This document shows, in pieces, positions 36,448-45,236 of a stretch of DNA of 64,000 bases (its first letter is position 1; each line of letters opens with the position of its first letter). The notes below the pieces were generated by a model. That model worked only from the letters and a program-made list of their open reading frames with translations, made no database searches and was not told the DNA's origin. Made by a program: the position numbers and the translations under genes. The stretch is taken from contig NZ_CP019062.1 in assembly GCF_002951615.1 (NCBI RefSeq), forward strand, positions 2,728,001 to 2,792,000. The letters run 5' to 3'. This DNA is from Rahnella sikkimica. Lineage in GTDB: Bacteria; Pseudomonadota; Gammaproteobacteria; Enterobacterales; Enterobacteriaceae.

Positions 36448-37829
36448 TTACATACTGCGGAGAATAGAAAGTATTCTTCTGGTCTGCTCCTGCATCAGTT
36501 TTGAATTCGCTCTGGATTCCACATTCAGGCGCACGACCGGTTCAGTATTTGAGCTGCGAAGATTAAAACGCCACTCGTCAAACTCAAGGCTGATACCGTC
36601 AGTATGATCCACATTAATGGCTTCATCTTCATAAACCGCCAGTACGCGTGCGATAGATTCTTTTGGTTGGTGCAGGAAGCTGTTTATTTCACCCGATGCC
36701 GGGTAAGCAACAATGCGGTCATTAATCAGTTGCCTCAGGGATTGCCCTTTCAGATGCAATAACTCGGCAACCAGCAACCACGGGATCATCCCGCTGTCAC
36801 AATAATAAAAATCCCGGAAATAGTGATGCGCACTCATCTCACCACCGTAAACCGCATTCTCCAGACGCATACGTTCTTTAATAAAGGCGTGTCCCGTTTT
36901 GGACATCACGGGGATCCCCCCGCACCGTTCACAATATCAATGGTATTCCAGCTTAAACGCGGGTCATGGATAATGCGGGATTGCGGGTATTTCTCAAGGA
37001 AAGCCTCTGCCAGTAACCCGACAATATAATAACCTTCGATGAAATTACCCTGGTCATCAAACAGGAAACACCGGTCGAAATCACCGTCAAAAGCAATCCC
37101 CATATCGGCGTTGTGTTTGATAATCGCATCGGTGGTGTCCTGACGACATTCCGGTAACAGCGGATTCGGGATCCCGTTAGGGAAAGTGCCGTCTGGCTGA
37201 TGATGAACCTTGATGAACTCAACCGGCGCACCCGCCTGTTTGAATCGCGCTTCAATGCCATCAATAACATGCCCGGCAGCGCCATTCCCTGAGTTGATGA
37301 CCAGCTTCAGCGGACGGGTGAAATTAGTTAAATCGACATAGCTGAGTAATTTATCGATATACGCTTCTAAAACAGAAGCCTGCTCGTATTTCCCGCGCTG
37401 CTCAGGGTCAGCGGGCGAAAAGTTATTCTCTTCTGCCAGCCGTTGTATTTCCCCAAGCCCCGTATCTCCGCTTATTGGTTTAGATTCTTCACGAACCAGC
37501 TTCATGCCATTATAATTCATCGGATTATGGCTGGCCGTCACTTCTATTCCGCCATCCAGTGCCAGATACGACGTCGCGAAATAGATTTCTTCCGTTCCGG
37601 TCACACCAATATCCACAACGTCCGTGCCGGAATCCTGCAACCCTCTCGCCAGCGCAAGTTTTAACGCTTCGCTGGTTAAACGAATATCTCCACCTAATAC
37701 CATTTTTTTTGGCTTTAAATATTCACCGTAAGCCCGACCAATCCGGTAAGCGATATCTTCATTAAGTTCAACGCCCAGTTCACCGCGAATATCGTAAGCT
37801 TTAAAGCAGGTCAATTTATCTGACATCAT
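36448..37829 (-). pseudogene. manB: Phosphomannomutase, frameshifted in a G6 tract
   Basis: ManB/CpsG converts mannose 6-phosphate to mannose 1-phosphate. The gene is in two frames. The 5' part (307 codons, from MMSDKLTCFKAYDIRGELG to a TGA at 36906) contains the phosphoserine loop VTASHNPMNYNG and the metal loop DGDFDRCFLFD. The 3' part, read from about 36909 to 36448, begins MSKTGHAFIKERM and contains GEMSAHHYFRDF and the phosphate-binding RSSNTEPVVRLN. Seven G instead of six at 36916-36921 would give the unbroken sequence GAGGIPVMSKTGHA, matching E. coli CpsG. So this is either a one-base loss, a phase-variable tract in the off state or a read error; both halves are otherwise intact. Confidence 0.88.
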
Positions 37830-37840
37830 TCATCCCCAAA

Positions 37841-39262
37841 TTAACAACGACCATAGTGGTCTTGTGTACGGACAATATCGTCATCCTCCAGATAGGAGCC
37901 TGACTGTATTTCCAGAAGTTCGAGCGGGATCTTGCCGGGGTTCTCCAGCCTGTGCTGTGCCCCGATAGGAATAAACGTTGACTGGTTTTCGGTCAGAAGG
38001 AAGTTTTCATCATTAATGGTGACTCTGGCCGTGCCTGAAAGAATGACCCAATGCTCGGCACGGTGATGATGCATTTGCAGGGAGAACTGCCCGCCAGGTT
38101 TAACCGTTATACGGTTAACGTGATATCTCGGCGTATTAACCACAATATCGTTTCTGCCCCACGGGCGATAAGACTCGCGATGTAAACGATATTCCCGGCG
38201 CTGAGTACTCTTTAAATATTCAACAACTTTCTTAACGTCCTGTACCTGGGATTTATCAATCACTAAGACGGCATCCTTGGTATTGACAATCACCAGATTT
38301 TCAACGCCAATTGCTGCGACAAGTTTTTCGTCGGTATTGATATAACAGTTCTCTGCATTGTGAGTAAAAACATCGCCGGTTACGGCATTCCCTTCGGTAT
38401 TTTTATTATTCACATCCCACAATGCGGCCCATGAACCGATATCATTCCAGCCAGCATCTAACGGAACCACAATGGCATCGGTCGTTTTTTCCATGACCGC
38501 ATAATCCACAGACTCATCCGGACAGGCAGAAAACGATTCCTTATCGACGCGGATAAAATTCTGTTGCGCATCAGGTTCGAGGGTTTCGATAGCTTTCAGG
38601 CAGGCTTGCAGAATATCGGGCCGGAAGGTGGCCATTTCTTCGAGGAAACGTTTTGCCCGGAACAGGAACATCCCGCTGTTCCAGTAGTATTCCCCGGTCT
38701 CGAGATATTGCATTGCCGTCGGTAAATTAGGTTTCTCAACAAAACGTTGCACACGAAAAACAGATTCCGCGTTACTGCTCAGTTCCATTCCGCGCTGGAT
38801 ATACCCATATCCGGTTTCAGGGCCAGTCGGCACTATACCGAACGTCACCAGCTTCCCCTGCTCCGCAAACGGAATGGCACTTTGCACCGCCTGGTGAAAG
38901 GCTTCCGTATTTTCAATAACATGGTCAGCCGCCAGAACCAATAATAAAGGATCGCTGTTTTCATCGATTGCGCTGAGTGCCGCCAGCGTAATCGCCGGCG
39001 CGGTATTACGCCCGACAGGTTCCAGAATAATATTTTTCGAAAGCCGGTTTATCTGCCGTAACTGTTCAGCAACCAAAAACCGATGCTCTTCATTACAAAT
39101 AACCAAAGGTTCAGAAGCCCCTAAACCCTTTAATCGGGTTACAGTTTCCTGCAACATAGATTGCTCGCCATGCAGGCGAAGAAATTGTTTAGGATAAAGT
39201 TCACGAGACATTGGCCATAAACGACTGCCGGTTCCACCGGCCATAATGACGGGAAGGATCAT
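37841..39262 (-). CDS. manC: Mannose-1-phosphate guanylyltransferase
   Basis: Makes GDP-mannose from mannose 1-phosphate and GTP; 473 residues of the ManC/CpsB type, with nucleotidyltransferase and C-terminal cupin (PMI-like) parts. The signature MAGGTGSRLWPMSRELYPKQF is at the N-terminus, and FVEKP and NSGMFLFRA follow. The cupin contains QMHHHRAEHWVILSGTA near residue 400. It lies directly before manB, 11 nt apart, as in colanic-acid type loci. Confidence 0.94.
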   Translation of the reverse strand: MILPVIMAGGTGSRLWPMSRELYPKQFLRLHGEQSMLQETVTRLKGLGASEPLVICNEEHRFLVAEQLRQINRLSKNIILEPVGRNTAPAITLAALSAIDENSDPLLLVLAADHVIENTEAFHQAVQSAIPFAEQGKLVTFGIVPTGPETGYGYIQRGMELSSNAESVFRVQRFVEKPNLPTAMQYLETGEYYWNSGMFLFRAKRFLEEMATFRPDILQACLKAIETLEPDAQQNFIRVDKESFSACPDESVDYAVMEKTTDAIVVPLDAGWNDIGSWAALWDVNNKNTEGNAVTGDVFTHNAENCYINTDEKLVAAIGVENLVIVNTKDAVLVIDKSQVQDVKKVVEYLKSTQRREYRLHRESYRPWGRNDIVVNTPRYHVNRITVKPGGQFSLQMHHHRAEHWVILSGTARVTINDENFLLTENQSTFIPIGAQHRLENPGKIPLELLEIQSGSYLEDDDIVRTQDHYGRC

Positions 39263-44099: not shown

Positions 44100-44121
44100 G
44101 GTAATTTCTCTTACTGAAAAT

Positions 44122-45236
44122 TCACTTAAAGGTTAAATCAGCGAGTTTTGACCAAGTGAATTTCTTCACTTCATCCATGCAGTTATTACTAAACCGGATA
44201 AGCGTCTCTCTCTCCTGGTAGAGTTTGAGTATTGCATGTGATATTGCTTCGATATTCTCAGTAACCACTAATCCTGTTGTGTTGTTTTTCACTACCTCAC
44301 TGATGGCTCCGACATCAGTGGCAATAGAAGGGACACCATGTTTTGCTGCTTCAAGAAAAACGAGGCCAAACCCTTCAATCTTCTTATTACTGTGTCTGGC
44401 TGCAAGAACAAAAACCTTGCTGTCCCGGTAGACTTCGGTTAATTCTCTGTCATCTACGCCAGAGCGTATTGTTAGGGTAACCTTTTTATCTTCTGCCAGT
44501 TTCCTCATTTCATCTTTGTATTCATCACTGCCGTTACCGACGATGGTGTAAATTATTTTTTCCCTGATGTCGTCGGGGAGCAGACCTAAAGCACTTATCA
44601 CATAATCATACCCCTTGCGGCTGTCTAATCTTCCCACAGTTAATATCTTGAAAACATCAGAATTCACGTCTCTGATATAGTCATCATTACTGATGTATAT
44701 ATCCTGCGTTACCCCAAGATAAGTCACTACTACCGGAATACTTTTCGGAATCCTATGATTCTCCAGGAGAATGCGTTTTGTATAATGACTGTTCGTGAAA
44801 ATAGATAACACATCAGAAAACAGATCAAGTGACTTTGCAAAAATCGCCGCTTTACCATTTTTTAAATTCAACACTTCACTCCCATGAAGCATGAGATTAA
44901 ACTTAATCTTTTTCCTTAATCTGAATTTATTAACAAATTGAATGGCAACCCAAAATGGCCAGTCGGCAACCAGAACAAAATCATATTGTTCGAAATCAAT
45001 TGACCGTACTTTTTTAATTAACTTAGGAAGATGCCAATATTTAAATTGCCCACCGGAAAAGAGATTAAGTGTTACACCCTGACTGAATTCATGTCCTTTC
45101 AGCGTGGCGTCATATTCCGGTGCGACGAGCGTAACAGAACAAGTGTCTTTAATAACATTAATGACCTCTTCACAGTACCTTCCTATCCCCCCTTGAAGGG
45201 ATAAAATTCATTGGTCAGTATTAAAATTTTTCTCAC
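44122..45236 (-). pseudogene. Glycosyltransferase family 4, frameshifted in a G6 tract
   Basis: The start is a GTG at 45236 overlapping the flippase TGA (GTGA). The first 17 codons (MRKILILTNEFYPFKGG) end at a TAG just after the G6 at 45187-45192. With one more G the reading continues as KGGIGRYCEEVINV, the classic GT4 acceptor-side motif, and stays open to 44122. The 3' part contains MLHGSEVLNLKNGK, ILTVGRLDSRKGYDYVISAL and EGFGLVFLEAAKHGVPSIATDVG. Repaired length is about 371 residues. The donor is unknown. This is the fourth gene of the operon with the same kind of lesion. Confidence 0.85.

What the first reader, a model, noticed from the sequence alone, without database searches (positions are those of the whole stretch)
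36448..45236. Four genes of one exopolysaccharide operon each broken by a single missing G in a poly-G tract
manB (G6, 36916-36921), the acyltransferase (G7, 40070-40076), GT4 (G7, 43875-43881) and GT4 (G6, 45187-45192) are each split at a G run, and adding one G restores a full-length family-typical protein in all four. Two explanations compete. (1) Slipped-strand phase variation: long G runs in AT-rich genes are unexpected, and a hexamer microsatellite lies in the same operon. (2) Homopolymer undercalls: every tract that reads in frame at six elsewhere is intact (speA 9702, gmd-like 34749, beta-helix 41087, wzy 42636, wzc 47623), while the broken ones would be seven or eight long. One in-frame G7 (41548) argues against a simple length cutoff. 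If real, the locus could switch acylation, two sugars and GDP-mannose supply independently, which I do not know to be described in this group.
Basis: partly seen in the sequence, partly recalled or inferred. Interest (0 to 1): 0.85.

Follow-up and report, generated by a model that had tools for sequence, protein, structure and literature searches.

The report
Four G-run frame breaks, probably undercalls
Four sugar-coat genes of a Rahnella-like bacterium are each split at a run of G's; the pattern fits shortened G-runs in the genome assembly better than a genetic on/off switch, although only the raw reads can settle it.

Summary
Four genes of an exopolysaccharide (EPS) cluster change frame at G6/G7 tracts where relatives run on in one frame. 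All four tracts cover a conserved Gly-Gly. Both parts of manB and GT4a keep third-position-biased substitutions, so those breaks look recent or unreal.

Best reading: shortened G/C homopolymers in the assembly, not an EPS switch. A gene outside EPS, an ATP-grasp gene on replicon C3, breaks the same way at a G8, the only gap in 4 kb against two Pantoea plasmids. All seven clear coding breaks are short, none long. None of 8 G/C tracts >=8 lies inside an ORF >=200 aa, against 25 of 40 examined in four relatives. mutS and mutL are open. ManB is unbroken in near-identical proteins.

Against: 25 of 52 exact G7 tracts are in frame; A/T tracts are not shortened; tract totals are ordinary; one relative has only 2 of 8 in frame; G/C runs >=6 are mildly enriched in the cluster. 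Real slippage (0.28) is not excluded. Raw reads would decide.

The parts
36916..36921 (-). G6 tract at the frame break of manB (phosphomannomutase), on a conserved Gly-Gly
36906..37829 (-). manB N-terminal piece (307 aa; PGM_PMM domains I-II)
36448..36909 (-). manB C-terminal piece (153 aa; PGM_PMM domains III-IV)
40070..40076 (-). G7 tract at the frame break of the acyltransferase, on a conserved Gly-Gly
40052..40456 (-). acyltransferase N-terminal piece (134 aa; Acyl_transf_3 positions 3-133)
39474..40100 (-). acyltransferase C-terminal piece (208 aa; Acyl_transf_3 positions 154-324)
43875..43881 (-). G7 tract at the frame break of GT4a, on a conserved Gly-Gly
43872..44099 (-). GT4a N-terminal piece (75 aa)
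43000..43875 (-). GT4a C-terminal piece (291 aa; Glycos_transf_1)
45187..45192 (-). G6 tract at the frame break of GT4b, about 15 codons after its start, on a conserved Gly-Gly
44122..45186 (-). GT4b, part after the tract (Glycos_transf_1 found in 44122-44892)
41548..41554 (-). in-frame G7 tract in the beta-helix gene (432 aa ORF)
41087..41092 (-). in-frame C6 (coding strand) tract in the beta-helix gene
42636..42641 (-). in-frame G6 tract in wzy (389 aa, Wzy_C)
34749..34754 (-). in-frame G6 tract in the gmd-like gene (361 aa, GDP_Man_Dehyd)
47623..47628 (-). in-frame G6 tract in wzc (723 aa)
39421..39452 (.). AAGTAG hexamer, 5.3 copies, between manC and the acyltransferase
52429..52466 (-). 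JUMPstart element upstream of the EPS genes

Best explanation
The four breaks are most likely too-short calls of G/C homopolymers in this assembly. The EPS genes happen to encode Gly-Gly with GGG codons, which makes unusually many long G runs; the assembly process (platform unknown to me, perhaps long-read based) shortened several of them, as at a G8 in an unrelated gene on another replicon. The genes are then intact in the organism and the operon is an ordinary Wzx/Wzy-type EPS cluster. Shown: the breaks, their place on G tracts, their common sign and the example outside EPS. Inferred: that they arose in sequencing and not in the cell, and that they are recent.
For: A fifth break of the same kind lies in an ATP-grasp gene of the 230-kb replicon C3 at a G8: the only gap in 4 kb at 91% identity to two Pantoea plasmids with an uninterrupted gene, substitutions in that gene mostly at third positions (67 of 90, 68 of 89). 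Two core genes carry one-base breaks of the same sign against G007, away from long G runs, so all seven clear breaks are short (two-sided chance about 0.016 if both signs were equally likely). G/C tracts >=8 inside an ORF >=200 aa: 0 of 8 here, 25 of 40 examined in four relatives (p 0.0013). Exact G/C 6 tracts inside such an ORF: 13 of 34 in 764 kb here, 22 of 34 in 692 kb of G007. Substitutions in manB against G007 fall on third positions on both sides of the break (third:first:second 90:6:7 and 56:9:3). A 459 aa ManB in one frame has 301/306 and 151/153 identities to the two pieces (its source is not given). mutS and mutL are uninterrupted. Literature: nanopore reads call long C and G homopolymers worse than A and T, and too short (PMC8486125, passages); accuracy is reduced on most platforms 'especially poly-C/G tracts' (PMC4490391, passages).
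Against: 25 of 52 exact G7 tracts lie inside ORFs >=200 aa, so there is no simple cutoff. Totals of exact 7s (52) and of >=8 (8) lie within the range of the 13 other genomes searched (46-108 and 5-25). A/T tracts >=7 shared with G007 are not shortened (18 shorter, 14 longer, 160 equal, tracts counted from either side), and shared G/C tracts are too few to tell (3 shorter, 1 longer, 2 equal). Over 305 kb aligned, one-base gaps number 78 here and 64 in G007, and those in G/C runs >=5 number 2 and 3. The core is otherwise clean: 2 clear coding breaks outside EPS among 499 genes compared. One relative (G011) has only 2 of 8 tracts >=8 in frame. PMC12007338 found A/T-run deletions about twice as common as G/C in one assembly (passages). 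The sequencing platform of this genome is unknown to me.
Confidence: 0.6

Rival explanations
1. Real slipped-strand mispairing in the sequenced isolate: the G tracts are slippery and several EPS genes were out of frame in the colony that was sequenced, either as a reversible contingency system or as EPS loss during laboratory passage.
For: G/C runs >=6 are in excess in the cluster (8 against 3.95; 61 of 2000 shuffles) where the rest of the genome avoids them. Breaks hit 4 of 7 G/C tracts and none of 26 A/T tracts (hand count). A 7A-6A change in kpsC of E. coli M12 switches its capsule off and reverts (PMC13410964, section 8), so short tracts can do this in Enterobacterales. G007 carries an in-frame G9 in its own EPS cluster.
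Against: The same break occurs in a gene unrelated to EPS on another replicon. Spontaneous capsule-loss mutants in PMC13410964 mostly had one hit, of mixed kinds (Table 2), not four hits on tracts. All signs agree. mutS and mutL are open. The tracts are only partly kept in relatives. Tracts of 6-7 are short for a switch (recalled).
Confidence: 0.28
2. Fixed recent pseudogenes: the strain lost EPS and the genes are decaying.
For: Four broken genes in one pathway; further one-base breaks against G007 in a metE-like gene and a PTS gene.
Against: The pieces are otherwise open and the other cluster genes are single ORFs (insertion sequences were not searched for), manB keeps third-position substitutions on both sides, ManB is unbroken in near-identical proteins, and every EPS break sits on a G run.
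Confidence: 0.1
3. Programmed frameshifting or transcriptional slippage at the G runs makes the full proteins from the sequence as assembled.
For: Homology continues in another frame right after each tract.
Against: Relatives encode the same residues in one frame, mostly without a long run; four unrelated genes at once would be unusual (recalled). Not tested further.
Confidence: 0.02

Closest known systems
Homopolymer deletion errors that split genes in long-read bacterial assemblies (PMC12007338; PMC8486125; passages only)
   Same: One-base shortfalls in homopolymers, genes split but otherwise open, not limited to one function; long C/G runs worst called in PMC8486125.
   Different: Here G/C tracts and few genes are hit and A/T tracts look unaffected; PMC12007338 saw more A/T than G/C deletions; no read data were available.
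Slipped-strand capsule phase variation, e.g. kpsC 7A-6A in E. coli M12 (PMC13410964, passages and section 8)
   Same: Homopolymer in a polysaccharide gene; a one-base length change puts the gene out of frame; Enterobacterales.
   Different: There one tract in one gene, with reversal shown; here four tracts at once, no reversal or heterogeneity shown, and a gene outside EPS shares the pattern.
Poly-G contingency loci with G10-12 tracts, e.g. Hpy99XXI of Helicobacter pylori (PMC4490391, passages)
   Same: G tract in a coding region decides the frame.
   Different: Tracts there are 10-12 long with read-level length mixtures; here 6-7 as assembled and only partly kept in relatives.

Membership tests
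Slipped-strand phase-variable (contingency) locus | Simple repeat inside the coding region, where a one-base change alters the frame | tested here: met
Slipped-strand phase-variable (contingency) locus | Tract length differs between cells or close isolates | tested here: inconclusive
   No reads. ManB is unbroken in near-identical proteins, but their tract DNA was not seen.
Slipped-strand phase-variable (contingency) locus | Tract kept at the site across relatives | tested here: not met
   No run >=6 at manB in the 14 rows shown or at GT4b in 3 distinct relatives; G6 in 1 of 3 at the acyltransferase; in-frame G7 in 2 of 4 at GT4a. So not met for two tracts and partly met for two.
Slipped-strand phase-variable (contingency) locus | Confined to or enriched in surface and exposure genes | tested here: inconclusive
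   Runs >=6 enriched in the EPS cluster, but an ATP-grasp gene on replicon C3 is broken the same way
Slipped-strand phase-variable (contingency) locus | Reversible switching of the phenotype | not testable with these tools
   needs colonies or reads
Homopolymer undercall in an assembly | Length errors on the short side | tested here: met
   seven of seven clear breaks
Homopolymer undercall in an assembly | Not limited to one function or replicon | tested here: met
   ATP-grasp gene on replicon C3; two core genes, away from long runs
Homopolymer undercall in an assembly | Long tracts in frame are missing compared with relatives | tested here: met
   0 of 8 against 25 of 40 examined; but G011 alone gives 2 of 8
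Homopolymer undercall in an assembly | All long homopolymers affected, A/T too | tested here: not met
   A/T shared tracts symmetric; 25 of 52 exact G7 tracts in frame
Homopolymer undercall in an assembly | Reads support another length | not testable with these tools
   no reads available

The most novel reading that the evidence does not exclude
The EPS cluster is a multi-gene poly-G contingency system in a Rahnella-like bacterium: Gly-Gly codons in an acyltransferase, two glycosyltransferases and a phosphomannomutase drifted to GGGGGG(G), so that decoration, two sugars and precursor supply can go off and on by slippage; the sequenced clone was off at all four.
Probability: 0.15. Interest if true: 0.6.

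Novelty: not a real feature. Interest (0 to 1): 0.25.

Why it matters
If the breaks are undercalls, the case shows how an AT-rich polysaccharide cluster rich in GGG codons can mimic a contingency locus, and that a tract outside the cluster is the control that exposes it. If they are real, it would be a multi-tract polysaccharide switch in a genus for which my two searches (listings and abstract starts only) showed no such report.

Tried and rejected
Mutator strain: mutS and mutL are uninterrupted; mutH and uvrD were not looked at. General undercalling of all homopolymers: rejected, A/T tracts >=7 shared with G007 are symmetric. General frameshift load: rejected, 2 clear breaks outside EPS among 499 genes compared. 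In that census five of nine multi-frame hits in own were set aside by me as upstream non-coding extensions or antisense ORFs from the codon-position pattern, one of them (codon 70 of a 912 aa ORF) ambiguous; the two reverse hits were likewise unclear; the 4 and 6 partial hits were not examined. Only G007 was used, so which genome changed was not polarised for the two core breaks. Hexamer frame scoring was of little use: of 62 tract places 46 unclear, 11 same frame, 3 shifted (GT4a, L209, L215), 2 at an edge; its A6/T6 'shift' calls (5 own, 7 relative) look like gene junctions. Control tracts: 40 of the 57 tracts >=8 in G002, G004, G007 and G011 were fetched (G004 15 of 15, G002 12 of 19, G007 5 of 11, G011 8 of 12); four further G007 tracts in stretches already held give 2 inside by the ORF list, i.e. 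27 of 44 in all. CdiA-type cassettes (L209) and an RHS gene (L206) on replicon C2 have G7/C9 tracts at ORF junctions or ends; I only described them and left them out of the count of seven. No structure prediction was run, since it would not separate the explanations.
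Full report
What is there. The window lies on the 4.64-Mb contig of a four-contig genome whose close relatives are Rahnella. G007 shares its contig length (691757) with Rahnella laticis SAP-17 contig3, which is how I name it; R. ecdela (G005), R. bonaserana (G003) and R. 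bruchi (G004) are named in the same way. The cluster runs from a JUMPstart element (52429-52466) through a Bac_transf initiating transferase, wza/wzb/wzc-like genes, a Polysacc_synt_3 flippase, GT4 glycosyltransferases, wzy, a beta-helix protein, an acyltransferase, manC, manB and a gmd-like gene. The names wza, wzb, wzc and speA are from the finding or from recall, not from a family search.

The breaks. In 36448-45236 four of seven G/C runs >=6 sit on a break, and none of 26 A/T runs >=6 does (hand count). Aligned with relatives, each tract covers a conserved Gly-Gly that the relatives encode in one frame, mostly with mixed Gly codons. GT4a has an in-frame G7 in R. ecdela and R. bonaserana, G5 in R. 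bruchi and no run in R. laticis; the acyltransferase has G6 in R. bonaserana, 1 of 3 distinct relatives.

Recent or unreal. Against G007, substitutions in manB are at third positions on both sides of the break (third:first:second 90:6:7, then 56:9:3). A search with the N-terminal piece (8000 candidates scored, best 120 listed) listed only proteins of 396-538 aa. One of the closest, P0049, is 301/306 identical to the first piece and 151/153 to the second, in one 459 aa frame; its source is not given and its longest contig is 2254 bases. For GT4a and the acyltransferase the nearest longer proteins are only 77-78% and 53-55% identical, so no near-identical EPS cluster was found there.

Is the run density special? 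A shuffle of synonymous codons gives 3.95 runs >=6 for the EPS genes, with 8 observed (61 of 2000 shuffles reach 8); for runs >=7, 1.1 against 3 (173 of 2000); for runs >=5 the cluster lies below expectation (10 against 15.7). For 300 kb elsewhere in the genome runs >=6 are 8 against 46 (100 of 100 shuffles reach 8). Regions around manB in six relatives gave 0-2 runs >=6 against 1.9-3.1 expected. So the cluster escapes the usual avoidance of G runs. Part of this is codon usage: GGG is 51 of 177 Gly codons in 36448-45232, against 13.9% elsewhere.

Is it limited to EPS? No. All 60 G/C tracts >=7 of the genome were listed and their ORF context was listed mechanically. On the 230-kb replicon C3 (taken to be a plasmid) a G8 sits where an ATP-grasp gene changes frame. 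Two Pantoea plasmids carry the same 4 kb at 91% identity with an uninterrupted 421 aa gene, and the single gap in the whole alignment is at this tract. In a census of 579 G007 ORFs against 764 kb of own DNA, 486 were intact, 80 had no or a low match, 4 were partial and 9 were multi-frame. Of the nine, four are clear coding breaks: manB, GT4a, a metE-like gene and a PTS IIC-like gene (the last two names from recall). The reverse comparison (660 ORFs) gave 491 intact, 161 none or low, 6 partial and 2 multi-frame. The two core breaks are away from long G runs. The acyltransferase and GT4b are too unlike G007 for this census and were judged. All seven clear breaks (four EPS, one ATP-grasp, two core) are on the short side in these alignments.

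Long tracts in frame. Of eight G/C tracts >=8 in the genome none lies at least 25 codons inside an ORF >=200 aa; in four relatives 25 of 40 examined do (G004 11 of 15, G007 4 of 5, G002 8 of 12, G011 2 of 8; p 0.0013). For exact 7s, 25 of 52 are inside here, and 5 of 5 in 692 kb of G007; for exact 6s 13 of 34 in 764 kb here and 22 of 34 in G007. In 80 wzc loci of several genera, Rahnella included, 21 of 28 tracts >=7 are inside. Totals of tracts are ordinary for the genus. G/C tracts thus tend to be out of frame in this assembly where comparable tracts in relatives are in frame, which is what shortening would give; the spread between relatives makes this moderate, not strong, evidence.

Technology. 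Nanopore reads underestimate homopolymer length and call long C and G runs worse than A and T (PMC8486125, passages). Poly-C/G tracts are said to be a weak point on most platforms (PMC4490391, passages). In one assembly A/T deletions were about twice as common as G/C (PMC12007338, passages), which does not fit the G/C bias here. A/T tracts shared with G007 are symmetric, and one-base gaps in aligned G/C runs >=5 do not lean to own (2 against 3). The platform used for this genome is not known to me.

Alternatives. Short homopolymers can switch a capsule in Enterobacterales: a 7A-6A change in kpsC of E. coli M12 is reversible (PMC13410964, section 8). In that study spontaneous mutants mostly had one hit, of mixed kinds. 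Four simultaneous tract hits, with one sign and a gene elsewhere sharing the pattern, do not look like that, but a slippage-prone isolate cannot be excluded. A second manC-manB-like pair (C1 about 4307.7-4310.5 kb; 470 and 454 aa, uninterrupted) means that a broken manB here need not cut GDP-mannose supply. The hexamer repeat is intergenic.

Verdict. Observation confirmed; phase variation not supported above the artefact reading. I put shortened calls at 0.6, real slippage at 0.28, fixed pseudogenes at 0.1 and programmed frameshifting at 0.02.

Noticed in passing
L215:1766-3030 (G000 replicon C3, about 197.4-198.6 kb): ATP-grasp gene changes frame at a G8; two Pantoea plasmids hold an uninterrupted gene. 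The best control for the EPS tracts.
   Followed up: yes
L209:1184-2531 and 3916-4976 (G000 replicon C2): Two CdiA-type cassettes (PT-VENN with NucA/NucB-like and Ntox28-like matches) with G7 tracts where ORFs meet; described only.
   Followed up: partly
L206:1983-4001 (G000 replicon C2): RHS-repeat ORF that ends 16 bases beyond a C9 tract, beside a DUF7710 ORF; described only.
   Followed up: partly
G000:C1 about 2611474 and 2673104: One-base coding breaks against G007 in a metE-like gene (367 aa in G007) and a PTS IIC-like gene (455 aa in G007), not at long G runs; names from recall.
   Followed up: partly
L123:6639-6647 (R. laticis EPS cluster): In-frame G9 tract in a 459 aa EPS-cluster gene of the near relative: a long G tract in frame.
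   Followed up: no
L243, L237 (G004): G11 and G10 tracts deep inside ORFs of 470 and 562 aa (stop to stop) in a relative; possible contingency candidates.
   Followed up: no
39421-39452: AAGTAG hexamer microsatellite (5.3 copies) in the gap between manC and the acyltransferase.
   Followed up: no
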